Below, piece by piece: positions 55,129 through 60,365 of a stretch of DNA of 64,000 nucleotides. A program made the translations under genes and the position numbers. Below the pieces are notes generated by a model. It was not told where the DNA came from. It saw only the letters and a list, made by a program, of their open reading frames with translations, and ran no database searches. Where the stretch lies: the NCBI RefSeq assembly GCF_032595075.1, contig NZ_CP118735.1:90001-154000 (forward strand), written 5' to 3'. The stretch comes from Streptococcus sp. 29887. Lineage in GTDB: Bacteria > Bacillota > Bacilli > Lactobacillales > Streptococcaceae. Position 1 is the stretch's first letter; each line of letters begins with the position of its first letter.

Positions 55129-55171
55129 GAACTTTTATGAAATTATGAAAAAGAGGTAATATGAAAAAGAA

Positions 55172-58100
55172 ATGCACTTTATTACAATCATTTGGACTAG
55201 TTCTTTTAGTACAGTTCTACTGTTACAAACAAATGATAACGTACTAGCAGATGATATTGTCAGTACAAAAGAAGATAACACTGATTATAACTCCAATTCT
55301 TCTCCAAATACACTAGATACATCGATTGAAGCTGCCAAGCAAAATGGAATTATCTTAGTTGAAACTAAGGAACAGGTATTTCAAGACGAGCCATTAGCTG
55401 AGCAAGATACTCAGAAACAAATCAATACGATCAACCAAGCAGTGGAATCTGCAAAAATAGAGGAACAAACATACAATCAAGAGGTTCAAAATTACCAAAC
55501 TTATCTGGAGGATAAGAGCAAATATGAGCAAGATAGTATCAAGTATGAAAACTACCTAAAGGAAATTGCAGCCTATCAGGAAAATTATCAGCAATACGAG
55601 GCTGATAAAAAATTGTATGATGAAACGTTAGTAGCAAACAAAGAAAAACAAGATACCTATCAATCAGAACTTAAAACCTATGAAGAGGCGTCTCGTACAT
55701 ATGAAGATAATCTTCAAGCCTATGAAAATGGGCAATTAACAAATGAAGCACTTCAAAAGCAATATGAAGAAGCGAAACAAAAGTACGAACAAGACTTATT
55801 AGCTTACCAAAATTTAAAGAAAAACTATGATCAAGCTCAATTAGACGATTTAGAGGCGGAAAAACGTTATCAACAAGCCCTAGAAATCTATCAAAATCAG
55901 CAGAAAACTTATATACTGGCTAAAGCGAGATATGACGAGGAAATGCTGGAAGCTCAAGGGAAACTTGGTCAAACAGGATATCTTACAGAGGTACTGGCTC
56001 AAAATTTAATTTTCCGTTCTGAGCCAAATACAACTCAAACTTTTACTGGAAAATACATCTCTCCCGAACAATTAGCGCTTTTGTCAAAGCATACAAATAA
56101 CTGGTTTGACCCTGGAACAGTCAACTTTCCAATTTCTACAAAAACGGTTACCACTAAAGGTCAATGGAACGCTGCCTATATGAAAATTGGTGATAGTGTA
56201 CAAGTTGACTATAGCGGGCTAGAAAATTCTAGTTTCTCAGGTCATAAGCTGGCTCGCGTGAGATATACCTATACCCTTTTAAACTCTACACATTATGATG
56301 AGTCTGTCATTCTTCAGGCCATTGATGATCCAACTGTTACTGCTTATGTTCATATTTATAATAAAGATGATCGAACAACAGGATCATTTGAAATAGAAAT
56401 GAAGGTACAGTTTTTTGACAATGAGGGTATGGAAATCATTCCAAATGATAAACAATATGCCTTAACCAGTTTTGCCAGTATCAATTCCCTAAACGGCAGT
56501 GGTGAGTATGTCGCAGGTTACAATGGGATTTTGTTCCCAATTACTGGTTCTACAATTACCATAAAAGACGGGCGTGCAATGAACTTTTCTTCTACACCTC
56601 AAGAAAGCCTAGCATCAGGCTGGGATAGTAATACTAGCCCAGATGCCTACATAGGTGCTATAGTTGGAAAGTCTACCGAAACAATTCGTTTCAACTTTGG
56701 AAATAGTAATGGTTTCGCCTATTGGTTCGCCTTTAATAGTGATGTAAAAGCCAAAGGAATACTCGATCCAGAACCTATTGCACCCATTAAACCGATTCGT
56801 GAAGTTATCAATATCCCTAGCGAGCCAGTAAGACCTACTGAGCCTCTAGTTCCCAATTATCAAATCCTTAGCAAACCTATACCTCCTGTAAAACCAAGTG
56901 AACCCAAGCTTGTCTCTGTTTCACTTCCACTGGAACCTGTCAAACCAAAGGAAGTGAAAAATCCAAGGGAGCCATTGGTTGTTAAAAAGCCAAACTCTCC
57001 GAAGCCAATGGTTGTCTTTTATCATAGAAGTATTTATAGACCACCTACAAAACGACCTTCGCGCTCTAGTAAACCAGTAGCAGCAATCAAAACTCTACCA
57101 GCGCGTGCTATTCCTCCTGTAACAACCTATCCCGTTAATCAGCCACGAATACGTAGCAATCCTGAGCCAAAGTCTCCGATAGTTTCCCATTACCCTACCT
57201 ATCAACCGTCAATAGTAAACAAAGCAAGCAAGACTTCTCCAAAGGTAAAACCATGGACACATGCTTCAACGCCCTCTCTTATGGAAAAGGAGCTAAAAGA
57301 CAAGCAGGCTAAACTTGATATCAATGATTATTTCCAGAAAAATCTAAACATCGACACTCGAGCTAACTCGGACAGCACACTTGATTATATTGACTTTTTA
57401 GCTAAAAAATTAGGCGAAAAGCATAAAGGAGATCAGGCAAAAATCAACCGTGATTTGGCTATAATGCTTGCTTACAGTAGTTACAGTACAGATAAATTAC
57501 AAAAATTACTTAATAATTTTGTTAAGCCGTATGACCATTATAATAGAATTATTGCTACAAATGCAATTGACATAAATCATGAATCTCCAAATGCACAAAT
57601 TGATTTTGCGCATACAATGACAACCCTGGCTTCACTTGAACAGCAAGACAATCATCTGAATAATCTGACAAAAGGAATGTTTAGTTTACATAATCCACTG
57701 TATTATGTGGCGTTAGTAACAAAAGGTGGGAAAGTTGGAGCTGCATTGTCTGGATTTGATTTAGTAAAAGCTCTAGCTGGTCACAACAATAAAGAGACAA
57801 TCTTACAACTCAATTCTTTTGTTGGGGATATCTATACCTATAACTCTATAAAAGATGTTAATTCCGATATGGATGCTGTCATTTTAAGTAGTCATCCTGA
57901 CTATAAAAATCTACCTTTGGCAGAGCGGATTAAAGCTTACTATGGTCAGAGTGATTTAAATGAAAAACGGCAAAAACTATTTTTGGAAAGCTATGACAAG
58001 AATACCAAAAAAGCAGGAAAAAAAGCGGCACTTGATATGATTGAGGCGAGCCTGACCATGGGGGGAGTACTAGCCCTTGGCTATGCTTTATTGAATAAGC

Positions 58101-58819
58101 GGAAACCAAAGGATATTGCTCAAAACCTTGCTATCACAGATAAGGTAGCGCTAGGAGGCACCTTTGACAGATGGAGAAAAAAACCGTTTGAAGCTATCAA
58201 GGATATTTCTAGTATCTATATTGAAAAGGCTGTAAACAAGGTTAAAGCTATTGTGTCCCCGATTGTCAAAATAGGAAAAAATGTTGTAAAAACGATTAAA
58301 GATATAGCTAATTCATTTGTCAAAACGGGAAAAAATATTTTAAAATCAGGAAAAAAACAATTCAATAAATTTATGGAATTTATCTCATCCAAGAAGAAGG
58401 TATCTACATCAAAACCAGCTAAAAAATCTCCCACAAAAGTTTCAAAATCTTTCAGTAAGATTGGTCGTAACATTACAAGACCTATAACCGGAATACTTCA
58501 GAAACTGACAGGAAACCCGAAGGTTTCTCCAAAGCCAAGAGCTTCTGCTAAACCTAAGGCAAGTCCGAAACCAAAAACGACTGCAAAACGCAAAGCAATT
58601 CCCAAGCCAAAAGCTTCTGCTAAACCTAAGGCTAGTCCAAAACCCAAAATGACTGCAAAACGCAAAGCAAGTCCCAAGCCAAAACCAACTGCAAAACGCA
58701 AAGCAAGTCCGAAACCAAAAACAACTGCTAAACCAAAGGCTAGACCGAAACCAAAAGTTGCTACTAAACCAAAGGCTAGACCAAAACCAAACCCAAAATC
58801 TAAAGGAAAAAGAAGATGA
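55172..58819 (+). CDS. Antigen I/II-like surface protein without LPXTG, basic repeat tail; frameshifted signal peptide
   Basis: 1215 aa as read. Order: coiled-coil repeat region rich in Y-E-x-D/N and Q (residues ~70-265), GbpC/V-type adhesin domain (~270-528, beginning LTEVLAQNLIFRSEPN), Pro-rich P-like region (~530-700, EPVRPTEPLVP, KPIPPVKPSEPK), an unrecognised helical domain (~703-950, with IDFAHTMTTLASLEQQDNHL), a hydrophobic stretch (ASLTMGGVLALGYALL, ~960), an amphipathic Lys-rich region (~985-1110), and a ~100-residue SPKPKxTAKRKA-type tail. No LPXTG or C-terminal TM. The natural start is probably ATG 55161 (MKKKCTLLQSFGLVLL), which is one base out of frame with the rest. ATG 55172 gives a weak, non-basic signal. 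Coupled (ATGA) to three small genes. Confidence 0.8.
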   Translation: MHFITIIWTSSFSTVLLLQTNDNVLADDIVSTKEDNTDYNSNSSPNTLDTSIEAAKQNGIILVETKEQVFQDEPLAEQDTQKQINTINQAVESAKIEEQTYNQEVQNYQTYLEDKSKYEQDSIKYENYLKEIAAYQENYQQYEADKKLYDETLVANKEKQDTYQSELKTYEEASRTYEDNLQAYENGQLTNEALQKQYEEAKQKYEQDLLAYQNLKKNYDQAQLDDLEAEKRYQQALEIYQNQQKTYILAKARYDEEMLEAQGKLGQTGYLTEVLAQNLIFRSEPNTTQTFTGKYISPEQLALLSKHTNNWFDPGTVNFPISTKTVTTKGQWNAAYMKIGDSVQVDYSGLENSSFSGHKLARVRYTYTLLNSTHYDESVILQAIDDPTVTAYVHIYNKDDRTTGSFEIEMKVQFFDNEGMEIIPNDKQYALTSFASINSLNGSGEYVAGYNGILFPITGSTITIKDGRAMNFSSTPQESLASGWDSNTSPDAYIGAIVGKSTETIRFNFGNSNGFAYWFAFNSDVKAKGILDPEPIAPIKPIREVINIPSEPVRPTEPLVPNYQILSKPIPPVKPSEPKLVSVSLPLEPVKPKEVKNPREPLVVKKPNSPKPMVVFYHRSIYRPPTKRPSRSSKPVAAIKTLPARAIPPVTTYPVNQPRIRSNPEPKSPIVSHYPTYQPSIVNKASKTSPKVKPWTHASTPSLMEKELKDKQAKLDINDYFQKNLNIDTRANSDSTLDYIDFLAKKLGEKHKGDQAKINRDLAIMLAYSSYSTDKLQKLLNNFVKPYDHYNRIIATNAIDINHESPNAQIDFAHTMTTLASLEQQDNHLNNLTKGMFSLHNPLYYVALVTKGGKVGAALSGFDLVKALAGHNNKETILQLNSFVGDIYTYNSIKDVNSDMDAVILSSHPDYKNLPLAERIKAYYGQSDLNEKRQKLFLESYDKNTKKAGKKAALDMIEASLTMGGVLALGYALLNKRKPKDIAQNLAITDKVALGGTFDRWRKKPFEAIKDISSIYIEKAVNKVKAIVSPIVKIGKNVVKTIKDIANSFVKTGKNILKSGKKQFNKFMEFISSKKKVSTSKPAKKSPTKVSKSFSKIGRNITRPITGILQKLTGNPKVSPKPRASAKPKASPKPKTTAKRKAIPKPKASAKPKASPKPKMTAKRKASPKPKPTAKRKASPKPKTTAKPKARPKPKVATKPKARPKPNPKSKGKRR
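58508..58810 (+). repeat. Tandem Lys/Pro/Ala coding repeats
   Basis: Degenerate ~36-nt and ~18-nt units encode ASPKPKTTAKRKA-like modules at least six times. DNA identity between units is high (e.g. ACTGCAAAACGCAAAGCA occurs three times), so copy number may vary between strains. Confidence 0.85.
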
Positions 58820-59851: not shown

Positions 59852-59858
59852 GGTATCT

Positions 59859-60365
59859 ATGAAAAAGAAAATACTTGTTGCCCTTATCCTAACCTTCATA
59901 AGCCTCCTGCTTTGGGGGATTGGAAAGCTGTATATCGCATATAATCTATCTCACTACGCAGGGTACTATGTCCAGCACATGCCTCGGAAAGAGGGGATGA
60001 ATCCAGAATTAGTCATCATTTTAACTCATCTGGACAGTATTGAAAGACCTTCGACCAATAAATTATCCTACGATCTTGATGGAAATGGCGCAGTTTTATT
60101 GGATAAATCTTTGGTGTTAGCCTACGGGACAGATTTCTTACTCTGGAATAGTACTAAAAATGAAAATTATCATTTTGATATGACTGGAAAATTTTCTTAT
60201 TATTACACTAATGATATTGATAATAAAAAATATGATTCACAATATCAAAAAGAGGCGGAATTACTTCTCGATAAAATCTTGCCCCCTATCTTAGAAGCAC
60301 AACCCAAACCAAAAATAAACCTTCAAAATCTATTTAACGACAAATACTACAAACAGTTTAATTAA
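59859..60365 (+). CDS. Small membrane-anchored paralogue 3
   Basis: 168 aa from ATG 59859. Same architecture; the core again differs (LVLAYGTDFLLWNSTKNENY) while DxDGNG and the terminal blocks are retained. The last copy ends KQFN without the final Glu. No terminator is seen directly after, the next hairpin being that of the IS remnant. Confidence 0.75.
   Translation: MKKKILVALILTFISLLLWGIGKLYIAYNLSHYAGYYVQHMPRKEGMNPELVIILTHLDSIERPSTNKLSYDLDGNGAVLLDKSLVLAYGTDFLLWNSTKNENYHFDMTGKFSYYYTNDIDNKKYDSQYQKEAELLLDKILPPILEAQPKPKINLQNLFNDKYYKQFN

What the first reader, a model, noticed from the sequence alone, without database searches (positions are those of the whole stretch)
55161..60365. Antigen I/II-like protein with a histone-like tail, coupled to a three-gene paralogue array
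The large protein has A-, V/GbpC- and P-like regions of oral-streptococcal antigen I/II but replaces the C domains and LPXTG anchor with an unrecognised ~250-residue helical domain, a hydrophobic stretch, an amphipathic Lys-rich region and a ~100-residue SPKPKxTAKRKA tail. Such a tail could hold the protein to teichoic acid or extracellular DNA by charge, or bind nucleic acid in a target. The downstream ATGA-coupled array of small membrane-anchored paralogues looks like duplicated immunity genes of polymorphic toxins. Inference: a new adhesin-toxin/immunity or adhesin-anchor system.
Basis: partly seen in the sequence, partly recalled or inferred. Interest (0 to 1): 0.85.

Follow-up and report, generated by a model that had tools for sequence, protein, structure and literature searches.

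The report
Surface adhesin carrying TelC-like toxin
A streptococcal surface protein that looks like an adhesin carries, where its wall-anchor part should be, a domain related to a known bacterial toxin that destroys a cell-wall building block, and it is followed by a row of small genes that look like its antidotes.

Summary

A profile finds 20 toxin loci in 17 of 284 Streptococcus genomes. Three lie at contig ends; the other 17 have a small-family gene just downstream (profiles partly built from these loci, see report). The small genes also occur without the toxin (22 of 39 genomes, six only as fragments), as immunity genes do. Among four S. suis alleles variation concentrates at residues 776-875; small genes vary mainly in the middle.

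The GbpC-TelC fusion is in print as one computational sentence (PMC12419801). My literature searches listed no paper on this immunity family. Toxicity is untested, and in this isolate the best-placed start codon is out of frame with the toxin ORF.

The parts
55172..58819 (+). Large ORF, 1215 aa: GbpC/TelC-type polymorphic toxin
55161..55258 (+). Export signal region. ATG 55161 has the better ribosome-site spacing but is out of frame with the long ORF; leader-like stretch MHFITI..VLADD in the long ORF
   Evidence: sequence; intact leader in P0003 and P0005; signal peptide judged by eye
55454..55936 (+). A-like helical region (Tyr/Gln/Glu-rich, heptad-like), residues about 95-255
   Evidence: sequence by eye; N-terminal part 23-30% identical in the relatives matched
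56138..56737 (+). GbpC / polymer-adhesin (V) domain, residues 323-522
   Evidence: Pfam PF08363 E 6.3e-30; 2wd6 over residues 246-574 E 2.3e-38
56852..57331 (+). Proline-rich P-like region, residues 561-720
   Evidence: sequence; NF033804 partial match over 325-684, 58 bits of a 1500 cut-off
57317..58045 (+). TelC-like (lipocone) toxin domain
57497..57796 (+). Polymorphic part of the toxin domain (residues 776-875), 0.67-0.77 pairwise identity per 25-residue block among four S. suis sequences
58037..58093 (+). Hydrophobic segment, residues 956-974
   Evidence: Kyte-Doolittle 1.55; a similar segment in the 15 relatives tested
58094..58816 (+). Cationic tail, residues 975-1215, ending KSKGKRR; SPKPKxTAKRKA-type repeats from about 58520
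   Evidence: 75 K+R against 8 D+E
58816..59334 (+). Small gene 1 (172 aa), candidate immunity protein: N-terminal membrane helix, six-stranded sheet, two C-terminal helices
   Evidence: model pLDDT 95.6
59327..59851 (+). Small gene 2 (174 aa, or 169 from MKKK), paralogue
59844..60365 (+). Small gene 3 (173 aa, or 168 from MKKK), paralogue
60423..60454 (+). Terminator-like hairpin AAAGCCGTTAGA-loop-TCTAACGGCTTT after the last small gene
   Evidence: read by eye; not listed by the scan
60533..60762 (+). Copy of the 3' end of the yeiH-like gene (88% identical over 231 aligned positions to 54694-54921), so the module lies between direct repeats
   Evidence: same fragment beside the toxin-free array in L079

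Best explanation
This is an interbacterial polymorphic toxin with its immunity array. The large protein is exported by the general (Sec) pathway and shows a GbpC polymer-adhesin head on an A/P stalk. In place of the antigen I/II C-domains and sortase motif it carries a TelC-family lipocone enzyme, which most likely cuts a lipid-linked cell-wall precursor (lipid II or a relative) outside the membrane of a neighbouring streptococcus. A hydrophobic segment and a strongly cationic tail follow; they most likely hold the enzyme at the membrane/teichoic-acid layer where its substrate lies. The small membrane-anchored proteins face the same space and block the enzyme. The array keeps paralogues matched to different toxin alleles, as tipC arrays are thought to do. 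Shown here: predicted fold, shared active-site-like residues, gene linkage, polymorphism pattern, orphan arrays. Inferred: Sec export, catalysis, substrate, target cells, role of the tail, immunity.
Against: No toxicity, enzyme or immunity test exists. The toxin model has low-confidence parts (mean pLDDT 72.5; residues 130-173, 185-191 and 245-261 under 50), and 185-191 includes G186 and D187. A sequence-profile search of the PDB did not return TelC at E up to 10, and profile-profile probability is only 42%. The small proteins are not TipC by sequence, so the inhibitor analogy rests on position, topology and polymorphism. A membrane stop plus basic tail could equally leave the toxin tethered to the producer. 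The 5' frame disruption suggests the gene may not be expressed normally in this isolate.
Confidence: 0.82

Rival explanations
1. A variant of the best explanation, overlapping with it: same toxin family, but the protein stays tethered in the producer's membrane (segment 956-974 as stop-transfer, cationic tail in the cytoplasm) and acts only on cells pressed against the producer, or on the producer itself, with the small proteins as continuous inhibitors.
For: A hydrophobic segment followed by a basic tail fits the positive-inside rule (recalled); the small proteins are predicted membrane-anchored.
Against: Tails of 59-304 residues are far longer than a sorting or stop-transfer tail needs, and keep charge but not sequence.
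Confidence: 0.3
2. A TelC-fold domain used for the producer's own envelope upkeep rather than as a weapon; small proteins are regulators.
For: Other lipocone families are predicted enzymes of lipid head groups in normal membrane and wall metabolism (PMC12419801 passages).
Against: Patchy occurrence (17 of 284 genomes), allelic island, multiplied and orphan small genes, tail-like remnants in arrays.
Confidence: 0.07
3. Adhesin with an anchor domain: the helical domain and tail only hold the protein to the surface; small genes are unrelated passengers.
For: No LPXTG; a cationic tail could bind teichoic acid.
Against: Enzyme-like invariant Asp/His set shared with TelC; constant small-gene linkage.
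Confidence: 0.04

Closest known systems
TelC of Streptococcus intermedius (LXG effector of the T7SS; lipid II phosphatase; PDB 5UKH)
   Same: Predicted fold, residue pattern D-x2-H / GD / D-x3-D-x-D / Y / R, toxin gene next to tandem membrane-anchored small genes
   Different: No LXG domain found, Sec-type leader (by eye) instead of T7SS export, GbpC adhesin head, membrane segment and long cationic tail after the domain; no Pfam, NCBIfam or PADLOC model matched the domain
GbpC + MucBP + prok-TelC predicted polymorphic toxins (PMC12419801, one sentence)
   Same: Same architecture class; relatives L037, L038 and L039 here carry MucBP and the TelC-like domain
TipC immunity family (NF033863; TipC2 structure 6DHX)
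   Same: N-terminal membrane helix, external beta-sheet domain, tandem paralogues with conserved ends and variable middle (PMC9484751 passages); TipC2 and the present model both weakly resemble polo-box domains
   Different: No NF033863 match for the window's proteins; hhalign probability 2.8%, E 0.016; different C-terminal signature (P.INLQWLFN against DW..YDS.YSP.NYGDV)
Antigen I/II (SspB, SpaP, S. suis AgI/II)
   Same: A-like, GbpC/V and P-like regions
   Different: No Pfam match to C domains, no LPXTG; toxin domain in their place

Membership tests
prok-TelC lipocone toxin domain | TelC fold | tested here: met
prok-TelC lipocone toxin domain | Active-site His/Asp set | tested here: met
prok-TelC lipocone toxin domain | Extra Asp six positions after the helix-4 Asp, and a conserved Arg in a C-terminal helical extension (clade-specific per PMC12419801) | tested here: met
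   D196/D202 and R234 invariant; that these positions are the ones meant is my mapping
prok-TelC lipocone toxin domain | Cleaves lipid II; calcium-bound | not testable with these tools
   -
LXG T7SS effector (TelC proper) | N-terminal LXG domain | tested here: not met
   Pfam reports only GbpC at E up to 1; the same library finds LXG in 5 of the 6 TelC-type proteins, 4 above cut-off
TipC immunity family | Match to NF033863 | tested here: not met
   No TipC row for the three small proteins at E up to 1; 0 matches in own genome; hhalign 2.8%, E 0.016
TipC immunity family | TipC fold | tested here: inconclusive
   6DHX not among the listed rows
Antigen I/II LPXTG adhesin | GbpC/V domain | tested here: met
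Antigen I/II LPXTG adhesin | C domains and LPXTG anchor | tested here: not met
   (58 of 1500 bits)
Polymorphic toxin system | Toxin tip after a conserved delivery part, with a linked candidate immunity gene | tested here: met
   (linkage only; immunity itself not tested)
Polymorphic toxin system | Allelic diversity focused on tip and immunity; orphan immunity genes | tested here: met
Polymorphic toxin system | Toxicity and neutralisation | not testable with these tools

The most novel reading that the evidence does not exclude
A Gram-positive counterpart of contact-dependent inhibition that needs no dedicated secretion machine: an antigen I/II-like surface rod bearing a lipid II-cutting warhead, exported by Sec through the very compartment in which it is active. 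A T7SS-exported TelC does not harm its own producer even when tipC is lost; here the producer would depend on its own immunity array. That array is a new, non-TipC family that persists at fixed chromosomal sites without the toxin.
Probability: 0.5. Interest if true: 0.75.

Novelty: new variant of a known kind. Interest (0 to 1): 0.62.

Why it matters
It links two well-known streptococcal themes, antigen I/II adhesins and TelC cell-wall toxins, in one secreted protein. It suggests that some proteins named 'glucan-binding protein' or 'GbpC/Spa domain-containing protein' in S. suis are weapons. It also gives a directly testable contrast with T7SS TelC: self-immunity should be needed by the producer here. 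The candidate immunity proteins matched no family above its cut-off in Pfam or NCBIfam (three from the window and eight from relatives), and the one scanned against PADLOC had no match.

Tried and rejected
Sequence-only routes to the domain's identity failed: Pfam, NCBIfam and PADLOC and a profile search of PDB sequences (cytochrome, calmodulin, ribosomal-protein and pollen-allergen rows, taken as chance; TelC not returned). The small proteins' profile found only a chance row there. Only structure, then motif alignment, showed TelC. The circumsporozoite-protein hits are low-complexity matches of the Lys/Pro tail.

Literature searches cover open-licence PMC papers only. In that library only PMC12419801 holds both 'TelC' and 'GbpC'. 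Of PMC12558993 I saw only the outline and abstract.
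Full report
Observation. Residues 323-522 are a GbpC domain closest in the PDB to 2wd6, the SspB V region. NCBIfam's antigen I/II model matches only residues 325-684, at 58 of 1500 bits. There is no LPXTG-type motif.

The 5' end. ATG 55161 has the better ribosome-site spacing (by eye) but lies in another frame, which soon stops; the long frame opens at ATG 55172. Near-identical S. suis proteins P0003 and P0005 read continuously from MKKK through the leader, so intact copies exist. 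Whether this isolate makes the protein from 55172, or not at all, is unknown; a sequencing error cannot be excluded.

Test of the match. Pfam finds LXG in 5 of the 6, in 4 above its cut-off; the sixth is a shorter frame. Jointly aligned, 9 of the 17 invariant columns are identical in all six: D112, H115, G186, D187, D196, D200, D202, Y225 and R234, under two aligner settings. Reversed sequences give 2; 60 column shuffles give a mean of 2.2 and a maximum of 5. Profile-profile comparison pairs the same motifs up to Y225, with E 2.6e-4 (one pair) but only 42% probability. PMC12419801 (sections 12, 29 and 30 read, other passages seen) states that TelC families are marked by an Asp six positions after the helix-4 Asp and an Arg from a C-terminal extension. 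D196/D202 and R234 fit, by my mapping. [quoted passage not shown]

The rest of the protein. In 16 of the 20 toxin proteins (the window and 15 relatives; the cut or broken L032, L033, L035 and L075 were not tested) the most hydrophobic 19-mer after the domain scores 1.46-2.09 on the Kyte-Doolittle scale, 1.19 in L077. It is followed by 59-304 residues with 20-82 K+R and 0-11 D+E, with basic ends (no shuffle control). The sequences differ between relatives, so charge is what is kept. I infer retention at the membrane or teichoic acids. GbpC domains are described as polymer adhesins binding DNA, lipoteichoic acid or glucans (PMC7726212, abstract and passages); that review gathered proteins that also have LPxTG, so this type was outside it. 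Of 20 toxin loci, 14 show GbpC in the same frame or just upstream (the GbpC profile used seven of them; Pfam itself confirms it in the six I scanned: window, L034, L041, L042, L043, L075). L037-L039 show no GbpC but carry MucBP. L035, L036 and L077 are pieces or stand-alone.

Linkage. Profile A2 finds 20 toxin loci in 17 of 284 genomes; it was built from loci, and G012 and G223 are new finds. Three loci lie at contig ends (G031:C12, G030:C184, G223:C6). The other 17 have a small-family gene on the same strand 267-998 bases past the domain match. This tally is largely by construction: A3 holds small genes from 14 of the 15 assessable relatives, and L040 and L045 were added for their position. 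The freer test is BLAST from the window's own three small proteins: 13 of 15 assessable relatives are linked, and L040 and L045 are not detected. L038 and G012, not used in A3, are linked by profile. The small family occurs in 39 of 284 genomes: all 17 toxin genomes and 22 others. A hypergeometric 6e-17 for that overlap ignores kinship and the shared origin of the profiles, so it is only indicative. Of the 22, six (G034, G042, G049, G160, G210, G269) show only fragments, and draft genomes may miss a toxin.

Orphans. This genome has a second array of three (the first truncated) at C1:2196726-2198283, about 250 kb from the toxin if the contig is circular, without a toxin gene. A relative (L079) has three small genes at the same site, between the yeiH-like gene and an alanine-dehydrogenase-like gene, without toxin and with the same yeiH-like fragment beside them. 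L080 and L082 share the second site. L086-L090 have small genes without toxin beside the same pgk-like gene that adjoins the toxin arrays in L037-L039. L084 and L092 carry frames that look, by eye, like toxin tails. Names of neighbouring genes other than yeiH are recalled from their sequence.

Polymorphism. Among the window, P0003, P0004 and P0005 (P0004 lacks the N-terminal part, up to about window residue 250), identity per 25-residue block is 0.95-1.00 over most of the protein but 0.67-0.77 at residues 776-875. Other dips are residues 1-25 (0.72, the frame difference), 626-700 (0.85-0.92) and the tail repeats (down to 0.77). The island flanks the conserved DFAHTMTTLAS core. In five intact small genes of this genome, mean pairwise DNA identity per 30-column block is 0.89-1.00 at columns 1-150, 0.80-0.82 at 151-240, 0.48-0.71 at 241-420 and 0.89-1.00 at 421-519. 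tipC genes have the same kind of block pattern (PMC9484751, abstract and passages).

The small proteins. The model is excellent (pLDDT 95.6, pTM 0.86): a helix to residue 32, two short helices, six strands and two C-terminal helices. Sequence does not tie them to TipC. Both this model and TipC2 weakly resemble polo-box domains, a hint of one fold, not proof.

Mechanism and contrast. S. intermedius lacking tipC is unaffected by its own TelC, which its authors explain by one-step T7SS export (PMC6193138, abstract and passages). Here a Sec-type leader (by eye, in relatives) would pass the toxin through the compartment where it acts, so the overlapping immunity array should be needed by the producer. 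That is the sharpest testable difference.

Novelty. The fusion class is in print as one sentence in PMC12419801. In the library searched no other paper holds both TelC and GbpC, and the listings of searches showed none that I recognised as treating this immunity family. Named carriers include S. hyointestinalis, S. vicugnae, S. thoraltensis, S. danieliae and S. hyovaginalis, and S. suis.

Noticed in passing
window 54694-54921 and 60533-60762: A copy of the 3' end of the yeiH-like gene (88% over 231 aligned positions) lies after the array, so the module sits between direct repeats; a relative has the same arrangement with a toxin-free array (L079).
   Followed up: partly
L028:8730-10287 (G000:C1 about 2196729-2198283): Second array of three small genes in the same genome, first one truncated, no toxin gene beside it.
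   Followed up: yes
window 55161-55230: Start codon with the better ribosome-site spacing is out of frame with the toxin ORF, unlike close S. suis relatives.
   Followed up: partly
L084:6359-7090 and L092:5024-5719: Frames resembling the toxin's C-terminal tail (by eye) remain beside small-gene arrays that lack a toxin domain.
   Followed up: no
L077 (G012:C14) 236-922 and L085 398-1522: Transposase-like frames (by eye) near a stand-alone 318-residue toxin-domain protein with small genes, and near a small gene in another genome.
   Followed up: no
CP020439.2:141216-142118: A 236-kb Streptococcus equinus record in the plasmid collection encodes a distant relative of the toxin domain (27.6% over query residues 25-356).
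   Followed up: no
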